This document shows positions 55,449 to 60,178 of a stretch of DNA of 64,000 nt, piece by piece. This DNA comes from a virus: the IMG/VR virus record IMGVR_UViG_3300028844_003248, positions 1 to 64,000 of that record, one strand, 5' to 3'. Position numbers and translations under genes: made by a program. Below the pieces are notes generated by a model that saw only the letters and a list, made by a program, of their open reading frames with translations, searched no databases and was not told the DNA's origin. How positions within the stretch are numbered: the first letter of the stretch is position 1; every line of letters begins with the position of its first letter.

Positions 55449-56376
55449 ATGTCTTTTTCAAATCTAAAACGCAACCGTGGTGGTATCGAAAAACTAATCA
55501 ATGCCGCTGAAAAAGTAGGTGGTGGTACCACCAAATCATATACAGATGAGCGTATCTGGAAACCAACCGTGGACAAGGTGGGAAATGGCTATGCCGTTCT
55601 ACGCTTCTTGCCAGCAGGTGAGGGTCAAGAACTTCCATGGGTTCGCTATTGGGATCATGGGTTCAAGGGACCAACTGGTAAATGGTATATCGAACGGTCT
55701 TTGACATCCATTGGAAAAGACGATCCAGTAGGAGAATTCAATTCAAAACTTTGGAACTCTGGTATCGATGCCGACAAAGAAGAAGCACGTAGGCAGAAGC
55801 GACGTCTTCACTATGTGTCGAATGTTCTTGTGGTATCTGATCCAGCCAATCCTCATAATGAGGGTAAGGTATTCATGTATCAGTATGGTGCAAAGATCTT
55901 TGAAAAGTTGAACGATTTGATGAACCCACAGTTCGACGATGAAACAGCAATCAATCCTTTTGATTTCTGGGAAGGTGCAAACTTCAAACTGAAGATCCGT
56001 CAGGTCGAAGGCTATCGTAACTATGATAAGTCTGAGTTTGATGGTCCGACTGAACTAGGAGCGGATGACTATTGTGAAGGTATCTACAACTCAATGCATG
56101 ATCTGTCTGAATACACAGACGAAAACAACTACAAGACTTATGCAGAACTCAAGGCAAAGCTTGAGAGTGTTCTGGGTACAACTGGTATGATGAGTATGAG
56201 CGATGAGATGAAACTCGGTAACGAGACATCTGCTGCTCCAATGCGTGAGATGCCAGCGCAGTCGATCACAGAAGTATCAAGTGATCCAGAGACTATTACT
56301 GTCTCTCTCTGTCGAAGAAACTTCAAAGGATGATGATCCAATGTCGTACTTTGCAAAGTTAGCCGCTGAAGGCTAA
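55449..56376 (+). CDS. 32: ssDNA-binding protein (T4 gp32-like) with apparent frameshift
   Basis: 294 residues are read in the first frame (stop 56331-56333). MSFSNLKRNRGGIEKL is the cooperativity N-terminus; the OB-fold with HYVSNVLVVSDPANPHNEGK and a long binding domain follow. The acidic C-terminal tail required for protein contacts is in the +1 frame: VEETSKDDDPMSYFAKLAAEG, stop 56374-56376. The switch falls in a TCTCTCTCT tract (56302-56310). Adding one TC unit joins the frames. Otherwise a typical, complete gp32. Confidence 0.85.
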
Positions 56377-56451: not shown

Positions 56452-58452
56452 TTAGAAACCTGCTGGTAAATATGTTGGATCTACATTATCAAAGCCAGAA
56501 CTACCGCCCATATTATAAGTATCTCCACCTCGATTATTACTTTGGTCTATATTGGTTGAAGACGAGGTTTCTGGCGCTGGCTGAAGGTATAGAGACACTG
56601 CTGCAAATTCTTCCGCTTCTCTGAACGCTTTTGTGGATTGCCTTTGCTTGAAAGCAAACTCTGCAGAGGCACGTCTGTCATCGAAAGCATCAGCCGTGTA
56701 TTTACCTGTGCTGGTGTCAAAGAAAGATCCTTGTGGTCTGCTTGCTGACCCCATATATGATAATTGCGCTCCAGTTAGAGCACGTCCACCGCTGATTTTT
56801 CCAGTTTTATTATCAATATTCATAGTTGGACCAAGCATGGCGTCTAGTTTTAGTGCTTGAGCGAGTTGTATTAACTCTGGTTTTTTCATATGCATAACAT
56901 CCAACATCATTGCCATTTCTGAACCAGGCGGTCCATAGCGACCACTTAACATGGGTAAAATATCTTTTTGTATTTTAAAAACATCATCCATAGGTGCGCC
57001 ACCTTGCATCAAGGCTACCATGGCTCTGAAACCTTTTTGAATTATAGGAAAATTATCTTGCATTGCTATCATTGTAGGCATTAGAGCCATTTCAGCAACA
57101 AGTAGTGGCATACTTCCAAGAACTCTAGCAGCGCCACCAGCCACTTTAGCGAGAGCTTGTCCTCCGCCAACTTTAGCGCCCTTCTGAACACCTTGCGCTG
57201 TTAACTGTAGTGCAGCCAAAGGATCTCCAGCCGCAGCAGAACCAAAGTTTACCGCCCCACCGAATCTACTTGGCATTTGATTTCTTCCACGTGGATCTTT
57301 AGCATCACTAGCAGAAGCATTTGTTTTTTGCATTGCTTCAACATTAGCTAAAACCTCCGCTTTCTTTGCAAAAATCTCCATGCCACCGGGGCGTGGCATT
57401 TTATAAGTCACTCGTCCAGTTTTATCAATAACTCTTCTATATCCAGCATCACTCAGGTCAGCATCGGATATTTTTCCTAACCTTAGATCCAAAGGATTAG
57501 CTTTTGGTGTAGCCAACGGCCTTGGAGCCGTTGTCTGCACATTTGGGCCGTCTGGAAGAACTCTAGGTGCCCTGTCTGCATCGAGATTTGTCCCACGTGG
57601 ATCTCCAGCATCAGCAGCAGCGTTTAACGCTATTCTTGCATTTGCGGCTTCAATGGCCTTTGTGCGCTGCAGCCTCTTGGCTGCTTTTGCTTCTTGAATA
57701 ATTCTATTTTGATTTGCAATGCGTTCCGCTCTATTGAATCTTTCTGTTTCTACCGCTACTTTTGATCTTCGTACTTCTTCTGCTTGCTTGAACTTTTCAT
57801 CCGCTTGTTGCATTTTTTGACGAGCCTCTTGAAATTTTTTATCTCTTTCTGCTCTAATAGATTCAGCACGTAGGCGTTTTGCCTCTCGTGCAGTTCGTGC
57901 TTCTATTTGTTTAAATTCTTTTAGTTGTGCTCTTTCAATACGTTTCCGTGCCTTTGTTTCTTCTACTAATCGTTTCTTTTCTATCTGTGCTTTTCTTTTA
58001 AATTCATCGGCTTCTAATCTAGCAATACCACGTTGTGTTTTAACTCTATCGTCAAACTGATTTTTTAAACCTCTTACTGATTCTGCTAAACCTTTAAGTG
58101 CTAATCGAATAGACCCAATCAACAAACGAAACGTCACTCTTGCAGCACCTAATCCCAATGCTCCTAGAAGTCCTGCTGCTGTAATCGTTTTTAAACTTGG
58201 AAACCCTCCTGATTTAGTAGATTTTCTAGTAGCCGAAGCCTTTGCCAGACCACCAGCCATAAATGATCCAACACCTTTTTTTCTTTCACGACGATCCTCA
58301 AGGTCATCCAATCTTCTTCTTGACATTTCAAGAAGAAACTTCTTTAAATTATTATCAATAGAAGTTAACTTTTGGTTACCTTCTTCTTGATTGTCAATGA
58401 TAACAGAGTCGTTACCTTTAATCAGCGCACCGATTTCTTTTAAACTGGACAT
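56452..58452 (-). CDS. 29: Tail tape measure / length determinator (T4 gp29-like)
   Basis: 666 aa. The N-terminus has amphipathic helices and a hydrophobic segment (TITAAGLLGALGLGAARVTF). Residues about 140-275 are a very long charged coiled coil. Hydrophobic helical segments follow at about 440-480 and Gly/Ser/Asn-rich turns at the end. It lies directly after the gp26/gp51 chaperones, where tape-measure genes belong. The ATG overlaps the gp51 stop. Confidence 0.7.
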   Translation of the reverse strand: MSSLKEIGALIKGNDSVIIDNQEEGNQKLTSIDNNLKKFLLEMSRRRLDDLEDRRERKKGVGSFMAGGLAKASATRKSTKSGGFPSLKTITAAGLLGALGLGAARVTFRLLIGSIRLALKGLAESVRGLKNQFDDRVKTQRGIARLEADEFKRKAQIEKKRLVEETKARKRIERAQLKEFKQIEARTAREAKRLRAESIRAERDKKFQEARQKMQQADEKFKQAEEVRRSKVAVETERFNRAERIANQNRIIQEAKAAKRLQRTKAIEAANARIALNAAADAGDPRGTNLDADRAPRVLPDGPNVQTTAPRPLATPKANPLDLRLGKISDADLSDAGYRRVIDKTGRVTYKMPRPGGMEIFAKKAEVLANVEAMQKTNASASDAKDPRGRNQMPSRFGGAVNFGSAAAGDPLAALQLTAQGVQKGAKVGGGQALAKVAGGAARVLGSMPLLVAEMALMPTMIAMQDNFPIIQKGFRAMVALMQGGAPMDDVFKIQKDILPMLSGRYGPPGSEMAMMLDVMHMKKPELIQLAQALKLDAMLGPTMNIDNKTGKISGGRALTGAQLSYMGSASRPQGSFFDTSTGKYTADAFDDRRASAEFAFKQRQSTKAFREAEEFAAVSLYLQPAPETSSSTNIDQSNNRGGDTYNMGGSSGFDNVDPTYLPAGF

Positions 58453-58640
58453 TATTGTGTGGCCTTTAGTTGTTGTTGTTCTTGCTTCAATTGATTAACC
58501 AATAGTGTCAAATAAATCTCCCTTTCCCATGGTATCATACTACAAATATTATCAAGCGAGTAGTTATGTTTTTCCATCAATAAAAAATTCGTTTCAAAAT
58601 GGCTTACCAATGTTTCATGAGAAAGGGCTATTCGAAAAAA
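58452..58640 (-). CDS. 51: gp51-like tail chaperone segment, -1 frame of gp26
   Basis: In the -1 frame after a T TTT TTC heptamer, the sequence reads FFRIALSHETLVSHFETNF, then LMEKHNYSLDN and MIPWEREIYLTLLVNQ, the conserved gp51 segment of T4-like phages. No ATG with a ribosome-binding site exists near its beginning, so it is best produced as a gp26-gp51 fusion (about 296 aa) by ribosomal slippage. Its TAA overlaps the tape-measure ATG. Confidence 0.65.
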   Translation of the reverse strand, partial: FFRIALSHETLVSHFETNFLLMEKHNYSLDNICSMIPWEREIYLTLLVNQLKQEQQQLKATQ

Positions 58641-59341
58641 TTCTGCATTCCCATTATCATAGTTTCGTTTTCATGAGCGCACTCATCACATTTAAATTTT
58701 ATATCGAGTTTCAACTGAGGCATATTCAAAACAAAGTTGCTTAGTTTTTCATATTGTTTCTGTGTCATGCCATTGACAAACTCTTCTAGTTCTTCTCTTG
58801 TTTCATCTTTTACAATAACTCTTTCATCTTCTGTCAACACTGCTTCAATGCTACTCAAAATTAAATCGTAAAGCCTTGTTACATCACTTTCAGGTTCTTC
58901 ATCACTGCTGTTCAGTGTATCAAAGTATGATATGTACCTCATTTGCAGAGAAACATCCTTAGTTAAGTCAATGATATAAGATTTTTTCTCAGGGGTATCA
59001 ACACTTACCTCATTTAAGTTTACATTGACTTCTTGTTCATGCTCACAATTAGAACATAGCATAATCAAATCTACCGTTTCACCAACAGATTTGGATCTAA
59101 TGTTGAGAAACAAATATTCAGCATCAAATGATGGTAAATTTCTTACATCTATATCATCATCTATACAACTTTCGATTATATCTAATGTTGCGCTTATGAT
59201 CTGCTTTTCTTCTTTAGTTTCAGAAGCAATCATTAAAACCTTTTCTTCTCCAACAAGATAAGGTCTGAATCTTGTTTTCTTGCCAGTTGACGGTATGGTG
59301 ATATCATACATTGGCGTATTGTTTAATTTAGGCAGTGCCAT
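58628..59341 (-). CDS. 26: Baseplate hub chaperone (T4 gp26-like)
   Basis: 237 aa. MALPKLNNTPMYDITIPSTG and RFRPYLVGEEKVLMIASET match gp26. Two CxxC pairs (CSNCEH and CDECAH) far apart form a split zinc site. It stops two codons after the slippery heptamer at 58640-58634, as the short product of G/GT-type tail chaperone pairs does. Confidence 0.8.
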   Translation of the reverse strand: MALPKLNNTPMYDITIPSTGKKTRFRPYLVGEEKVLMIASETKEEKQIISATLDIIESCIDDDIDVRNLPSFDAEYLFLNIRSKSVGETVDLIMLCSNCEHEQEVNVNLNEVSVDTPEKKSYIIDLTKDVSLQMRYISYFDTLNSSDEEPESDVTRLYDLILSSIEAVLTEDERVIVKDETREELEEFVNGMTQKQYEKLSNFVLNMPQLKLDIKFKCDECAHENETMIMGMQNFFE

Positions 59342-59370: not shown

Positions 59371-60178
59371 TTAATATGGTCCAGACGTTCCAGTACGACG
59401 AACACTAGGGGGTGGATTGTTTGGATATGTTGTTGTAACTGGTTTTGTTACATTGGTTGGTCTTGATTTCGGTCTCACTGATGTTGCTGGTGCACCACTT
59501 GCACTTGGAATAAGATTATTGGTAACTGTCGGTTTCGATGGAGTAAAGTTAGATCTCCAGTTTTTATACGAAAGCTGGATCTGTAACTGCATCACATCTC
59601 CCATTGCGTTTCCAAGTTCAACTGCACTCATAGTAGTACAAAATGCTTTTTCTAATGTACACTCATAGACAACTGCCTCTCTAAAGATTGGTAGATCGAT
59701 ATCTAACTCACCTTGTGCAAGATCAAGAGATCCTATCTTTGGTAGTCTGTTTTGTATTTCTGCTGGTAGTATAGGCAATCCTAAAGGTGTATATCGGTAA
59801 TGTAAACCCTCTTTTTAGCTGTTGGATTTTAACATCAAATGTATACTCACTGTGGTAGTTTGGTTCTAGAGTGTTTGGATCGAGTGCAAGTGCTTGCCAT
59901 GATTCAAAATAGTTTTTAATACCGTAATCATTGAGAAGCAAGAACGTCATGTTTACATCGTCATATGCTTGGTCATATGCGACCTTCTGCATTATCGTAC
60001 CAATTTTTCTTTCTTGTGTCATGATCTGACGACCTGGCAGGTTTACATTAGAACACAATAGATTTATTTCTCTGCTTGTGGCACCTGGCATAGACGGTAA
60101 AAATACTCTGTAGATATTACCTTTTGCTATACCACTACTCTTTGATACCAAACCTTTGAGATCTTCAATTCTAGCCAT
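59371..60178 (-). CDS. Tail-tube paralogue (T4 gp19/gp54-like) with apparent frameshift
   Basis: The first frame (60178-59723) gives NIYRVFLPSMPG, NLLCSNVNLPGRQIMTQER and FLLLNDYGIKNYFESWQ, diagnostic of the T4 tail-tube/tube-initiator family. It should continue with the C-terminal strand YECTLEKAFCTTMSAVEL plus LQIQLSYKNWRS, but that lies in another frame (59371-59778, no proper start). The break is near 59786-59794 at TATACACC (minus strand); one more AC unit restores the frame. The joined protein ends in a Pro/Ser/Thr-rich tail. Confidence 0.72.

What the first reader, a model, noticed from the sequence alone, without database searches (positions are those of the whole stretch)
58452..58660. 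Candidate -1 programmed frameshift joining gp26 and gp51
Minus strand 58640-58634 is T TTT TTC in the gp26 frame, two codons before its stop. In the -1 frame the conserved gp51 segment follows for 60 codons and ends at the tape-measure ATG. That segment lacks a start codon near its beginning. This is the exact layout of tail-assembly chaperone frameshifts (lambda G/GT type), placed right before the tape measure.
Basis: partly seen in the sequence, partly recalled or inferred. Interest (0 to 1): 0.7.

Follow-up and report, generated by a model that had tools for sequence, protein, structure and literature searches.

The report
Frameshift makes phage tail chaperone
A marine T4-like phage very probably makes a long form of its tail-assembly chaperone by letting ribosomes slip back one base on a run of six T's, a trick known from phage lambda and already proposed for T4-like phages, so this is a well-supported new example and not a new kind of system.

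Summary
On the minus strand, gp26 (59341-58628; PF12322) carries an in-frame T TTT TTC heptamer (58640-58634) just before its stop, and the gp51 segment follows in the -1 frame down to 58452, overlapping the next gene's ATG. In 316 of 316 related loci where both parts were found, gp51 lies in the -1 frame, and 111 of 113 independent clusters have T_TTT_TTN at the site, against 5.9% of other Phe-Phe dipeptides. The stretch between heptamer and first possible start codon evolves as -1-frame coding sequence (P = 2.5e-32). The fusion is collinear with T4 gp51, which is one uninterrupted protein, and the gp26 model best matches solved tail assembly chaperones (HK97 2OB9). I conclude a -1 programmed frameshift makes TAC-N (gp26) and TAC-NC (gp26-gp51); no protein evidence was available. 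This kind is known: tail assembly chaperones of T4-like phages, frameshifting and two-gene versions, were described by Vladimirov, Gautam and Davidson (Virology 2022). Apparently unreported: nucleotide-level selection for a Shine-Dalgarno-like GAGG 10-15 nt upstream of the site, and lineage-specific downstream stems. The window's own site has only weak versions of both. Low to moderate interest.

The parts
58628..59341 (-). gp26, short form TAC-N (237 aa, PF12322 T4_baseplate); N-terminal ~96 residues with tail assembly chaperone fold
   Evidence: AlphaFold2 pLDDT 92.4; best PDB matches 2OB9 Z 7.7 and 3FGX Z 7.4
58634..58640 (-). slippery heptamer T TTT TTC in the gp26 frame (proposed -1 shift site)
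   Evidence: heptamer T_TTT_TTN in 111 of 113 independent clusters
58628..58630 (-). gp26 stop codon TAG (ends the unshifted product)
58452..58640 (-). -1-frame segment gp51 = TAC-C (60 aa after FF), no start codon near its beginning; ends TAATG
   Evidence: -1 frame in 316 of 316 loci; coding signature upstream of any start codon
58649..58655 (-). weak Shine-Dalgarno-like stretch around GGG (58652-58650) at the position where relatives carry GAGG
   Evidence: duplex energy -4.2 against family median -5.8 kcal/mol; family-level selection for G at -15 and -12
56452..58452 (-). 666-aa gene that starts in the gp51 stop codon; candidate tape measure protein by position and length only
   Evidence: no family match and no match in public phages

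Best explanation
gp26 and gp51 are one frameshifted tail-assembly-chaperone gene. Most ribosomes translate gp26 to its TAG and make the short form TAC-N (237 aa). A minority slip back one base on U UUU UUC (tRNA-Phe in both P and A sites re-pairs with UUU UUU), read CGA next, and make the long form TAC-NC of 296 aa (about 34 kDa). By analogy with lambda gpG/gpGT, many TAC-N and few TAC-NC coat the tape measure protein, the C-terminal part recruits tail tube subunits, and both leave the finished tail. Shown here: the sequence layout, its conservation, coding evolution of the -1 segment, collinearity with T4 gp51, and fold similarity of gp26 to known chaperones. Inferred: that slippage occurs on the ribosome, its rate, and the assembly role.
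For: (1) In 316 of 316 loci with both parts, gp51 is in the -1 frame; none are in frame or +1. (2) T_TTT_TTN in 269 of 271 unique junctions and 111 of 113 clusters at 60% identity, against 18 of 307 other FF dipeptides. (3) Between the heptamer and the first possible start codon, substitutions fall at -1-frame codon positions 197/126/379 (P = 2.5e-32); over codons 2-19, 544 synonymous codon changes in the -1 frame against 151 and 86 in the other two frames. (4) In 20 of 111 clusters a -1-frame stop directly precedes the heptamer, and no cluster has its first start codon in the last codons before it. (5) The fusion matches phrog_150 end to end (1-286 to 5-281 of 282, E 3.2e-77), as does T4 gp51; T4 gp51 aligns across the junction, T4 gp26 ends at FF. 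(6) gp26 model: top matches are the chaperones 2OB9 and 3FGX (identified as chaperones in PMC9603447). (7) Nucleotide-level selection for a Shine-Dalgarno-like element 10-15 nt upstream and for downstream structure.
Against: No protein or reporter data. At the window's own site the Shine-Dalgarno-like element is weak (-4.2 kcal/mol, weaker than 88 of 111 clusters) and the downstream RNA fold is unremarkable (z -0.02), so efficiency may be low. U_UUU_UUU and U_UUU_UUA are reported as much less shift-prone than A_AAA_AAG in E. coli constructs (PMC5009743); the host here is unknown. The fold match is moderate (Foldseek E 0.37; Z below 8).
Confidence: 0.93

Rival explanations
1. gp51 is a separate small protein started internally (for example at TTG 58610), with translation coupled to the gp26 stop.
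For: Public annotations of relatives place a short gp51 gene at an internal start; a TTG start exists in the window.
Against: Such a start drops about ten conserved residues, and the -1 frame shows coding constraint before any start codon. First starts are at scattered codons (3 to 28) across clusters and 121 of 271 junctions have none up to 60 nt beyond the start of the gp51 profile match. No canonical start lies at the right spacing from the conserved Shine-Dalgarno-like element.
Confidence: 0.03
2. Transcriptional slippage: RNA polymerase adds or drops U's on the T-run and the fusion is read from edited mRNA.
For: 42 of 111 clusters have T8 and one has T9, lengths at which polymerase slippage is plausible from general knowledge.
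Against: 59 of 111 clusters, including the window, have only T6. The codon-phased heptamer, the Shine-Dalgarno-like element at fixed spacing and downstream structure are features of ribosomal -1 sites.
Confidence: 0.04
3. Sequencing or assembly error, or a pseudogene, splitting a single gp26-gp51 gene.
For: The same contig has another frame break nearby (tail tube gene around 59791) and a 4-base indel near 56302.
Against: The junction is identical in the second contig L001, and the same -1 arrangement is present in every relative, including cultured phages.
Confidence: 0.005

Closest known systems
Tail assembly chaperones of T4-like phages (Vladimirov, Gautam and Davidson 2022, Virology 566:9-15; seen here only through citing papers PMC10885494 and PMC12846349)
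   Same: Same gene family, same poly-T slippery signal near the end of TAC-N reported for T4-like phages, same TAC-N / TAC-NC logic.
   Different: This window is an uncultured phage about 42% identical at best to a gp26 in the public phage records; the Shine-Dalgarno-like element and downstream stems quantified here are not mentioned in the citing texts I could read.
T4 genes 26 and 51
   Same: T4 gp51 is collinear with the whole fusion, T4 gp26 with the short form.
   Different: T4 encodes short and long forms as two separate, oppositely oriented genes with no frameshift needed; the 65.5-kb record of this phage has only one copy.
Lambda gpG / gpGT
   Different: Slippery site differs (lambda GGGAAAG, from memory); no sequence similarity tested; T4-like contractile-tail relatives here.
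E. coli dnaX frameshift signal
   Same: Shine-Dalgarno-like element upstream of a homopolymer heptamer with a downstream hairpin (PMC5600365).
   Different: U-run instead of A-run; the shifted frame here adds a domain, not an early stop; elements weak at this site.

Membership tests
[quoted passage not shown]
   T TTT TTC 58640-58634; 111 of 113 clusters
Frameshifted tail assembly chaperone (lambda G/GT kind) | C-terminal domain in the -1 frame, overlapping, without its own start codon | tested here: met
   316 of 316 loci in -1 frame; start-codon survey; coding signature
Frameshifted tail assembly chaperone (lambda G/GT kind) | TAC-N fold | tested here: met
   2OB9 Z 7.7 over 85 residues and 3FGX Z 7.4, next row Z 4.5; moderate strength, Foldseek E 0.37
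Frameshifted tail assembly chaperone (lambda G/GT kind) | Position between tail tube and tape measure genes | tested here: inconclusive
   Tail tube-like gene just upstream (phrog_45); the downstream 666-aa gene has no family match, tape measure by position only
Frameshifted tail assembly chaperone (lambda G/GT kind) | Both products made in a fixed ratio and required for tail assembly | not testable with these tools
   Needs protein or genetic data
T4-like gp26/gp51 family (PF12322 / phrog_150 / phrog_634) | Profile match of both parts | tested here: met
   PF12322 E 1.2e-59; fusion against phrog_150 E 3.2e-77; phrog_634 E 1.6e-22
T4 two-gene arrangement (separate short and long genes) | Second, full-length PF12322 gene in the genome | tested here: not met
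   Only one match in the 65.5-kb record, which may be an incomplete genome
dnaX-type stimulated -1 site | Upstream Shine-Dalgarno-like element and downstream structure | tested here: inconclusive
   Family level: selected. Window: weak (-4.2 kcal/mol; fold z -0.02)

The most novel reading that the evidence does not exclude
The tail-chaperone frameshift of marine T4-like phages uses a dnaX-like internal Shine-Dalgarno stimulator at fixed spacing (G at -15 and -12, GG at -11/-10), combined in some lineages with alternative downstream stems; lineages such as the window's have largely lost both and would set the chaperone ratio by the nearly bare T-run.
Probability: 0.5. Interest if true: 0.45.

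Novelty: new member of a known kind. Interest (0 to 1): 0.35.

Why it matters
It corrects an annotation fault: the C-terminal chaperone domain is truncated or left out in the public marine T4-like records examined here. It shows that one abundant group of ocean phages keeps the frameshift solution where T4 uses two separate genes, a clean natural comparison of two ways to set a protein ratio. The synonymous-site signal upstream gives a directly testable stimulator.

Tried and rejected
Sequencing error: rejected by an identical junction in L001 and by family conservation. Internal start: no canonical start at the right place. Downstream structure at the window's own site: not significant, and no Rfam match. 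Trade-off between strength of the Shine-Dalgarno-like element and downstream structure: no correlation (Spearman 0.09, P 0.36). PDB sequence search with the gp26 profile: nothing. Tape-measure identity of 56452-58452: no family or phage match. The key paper (Vladimirov 2022) is not in the library and was used only through citing papers. Structure prediction of the fusion itself was not attempted: a -1-shifted protein cannot be read letter for letter from the DNA, as the tool requires.

Full report
What is there. The minus-strand gp26 ORF (59341-58628, 237 aa) ends ATG CAG AAT TTT TTC GAA TAG; T TTT TTC (58640-58634) is a canonical X XXY YYZ -1 heptamer in the gp26 frame. The -1 frame is open from ten codons upstream of the heptamer to TAA 58454-58452, which overlaps the ATG of the next gene (TAATG). 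gp26 is PF12322 / phrog_150 and the -1 segment is phrog_634, annotated as gp51 baseplate hub assembly catalyst. The only start codon near the segment's beginning is TTG 58610, ten codons into conserved sequence.

Conservation. Four further scans of viral contigs plus public phages gave 327 loci with a gp26 ORF. In all 316 where a gp51 match was found it lies in the -1 frame, never in frame or +1. Of 271 unique junctions, 269 carry T_TTT_TTN in the gp26 frame within the overlap; the exceptions are two Ackermannviridae phages, where gp51 is also in the -1 frame but the site reads ATTTTC or GTTTTC. After clustering at 60% protein identity, 111 of 113 clusters have the heptamer, against 18 of 307 (5.9%) of other Phe-Phe dipeptides in the same loci, so the site is not a by-product of the conserved Phe-Phe.

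The -1 segment is translated from the heptamer on. In 126 independent pairs, the part before any ATG/GTG/TTG has differences at -1-frame codon positions 1/2/3 of 197/126/379 (P = 2.5e-32); over codons 2-19, synonymous codon changes number 544 in the -1 frame against 151 and 86 in the other two. In 20 of 111 clusters a -1-frame stop directly precedes the heptamer, so nothing upstream could start that frame. Internal initiation does not explain these facts.

The fusion as a real protein. A fusion query aligns in two pieces in cyanophages, but in a single piece over roughly residues 24-292 in several Straboviridae. T4 gp51 is one uninterrupted 249-aa protein collinear with the fusion across the junction (hhalign E 3.8e-8, columns 20-281), while T4 gp26 matches only the part up to FF (E 1.3e-14). 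Both T4 proteins are PF12322, and the window fusion and T4 gp51 each match phrog_150 nearly end to end. In T4 the two genes are separate and oppositely oriented. The window's 65.5-kb record has one copy only.

Function. AlphaFold2 gives gp26 a confident model (pLDDT 92.4). Its first ~96 residues best match the HK97 tail assembly chaperone 2OB9 (Z 7.7) and 3FGX (Z 7.4), the next row being Z 4.5; both are tail assembly chaperones according to PMC9603447. Z under 8 is only moderate on its own, but the two best rows of 666 being chaperones fits the layout. The tail tube-like gene lies just upstream. The 666-aa gene downstream has relatives in L002, L029 and L021 but no family match; I treat it as the tape measure by position and length only.

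How it probably works. As in lambda (PMC5009743): the short form coats the tape measure, a minority long form made by -1 slippage brings in tail tube subunits, and neither stays in the virion. The slip, its rate and the assembly role are inferred.

Stimulators. Across clusters, pairing to the anti-Shine-Dalgarno is stronger than synonymous resampling predicts for a site ending about 10 nt before the heptamer (t about -8). Third-base G is in excess at -15 (z 6.2) and -12 (z 4.7), not at three codons further upstream, and other Glu-Gly dipeptides show no GAG excess (16 against 19.3 expected; 37 of 55 at the site). RNA downstream is more stable than synonymous resampling (mean z -0.8 to -1.0, t -6 to -8.5), with about a third of clusters individually notable; two alternative stems are enriched, each in roughly a tenth of clusters. 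The window has a weak form of the upstream element (-4.2 against a median of -5.8 kcal/mol) and no notable downstream fold. T-run length is 6 in 59 of 111 clusters and 8 in 42, so transcriptional slippage may contribute in some relatives but is unlikely here.

Known or new. The tail assembly chaperones of T4-like phages, including the two-gene version, were described by Vladimirov, Gautam and Davidson (Virology 2022); I could read this only through papers that cite it, one of which says that poly-T sequences are known -1 signals in TAC-N genes of T4-like phages. That the abstract also names frameshifting T4-like groups is from memory. A comparable case was published for Vandenendeviridae (PMC12846349). 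This is therefore a new member of a known kind. Public records of relatives still annotate gp51 as a truncated gene or not at all, so the practical gain is an annotation correction and a testable stimulator.

Noticed in passing
window 59371-60178 (-): The tail tube-like gene (phrog_45) is split into two frames by a +1 shift near 59791, whereas L002 has one uninterrupted ORF there; contig L001, otherwise 99.9% identical, starts exactly at 59791. Probably an assembly or sequence error at that point.
   Followed up: partly
window about 56302-56305: The window has 4 extra bases relative to L001 inside the plus-strand gene 55449-56333 (probably the ssDNA-binding protein, by analogy with L004; not tested), which would change its C-terminus.
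   Followed up: partly
L012 1777 and L018 1600 (Ackermannviridae); L019 1528 (Vibrio phage K475): Distant relatives keep gp51 in the -1 frame but without T6: GTTTTC, ATTTTC and CTTTTTG. Possible divergent slip sites.
   Followed up: partly
L015, L016, L020 (cyanophages); L004, L005, L014, L017: Public annotation omits the -1 segment or starts gp51 at an internal codon, cutting conserved residues.
   Followed up: yes
L006 2708-2760 (P-SSM2) and similar loci: A 9-bp stem-loop (GUAUGGCUC...GAGUCAUAC, one G-U pair) starting a few bases after the heptamer, with GGAGGG upstream: a good candidate for a strong -1 signal.
   Followed up: partly
window 56452-58452 (-): The 666-aa candidate tape measure has no match in public phages or profile libraries, only in metagenomic relatives L002, L029 and L021.
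   Followed up: partly
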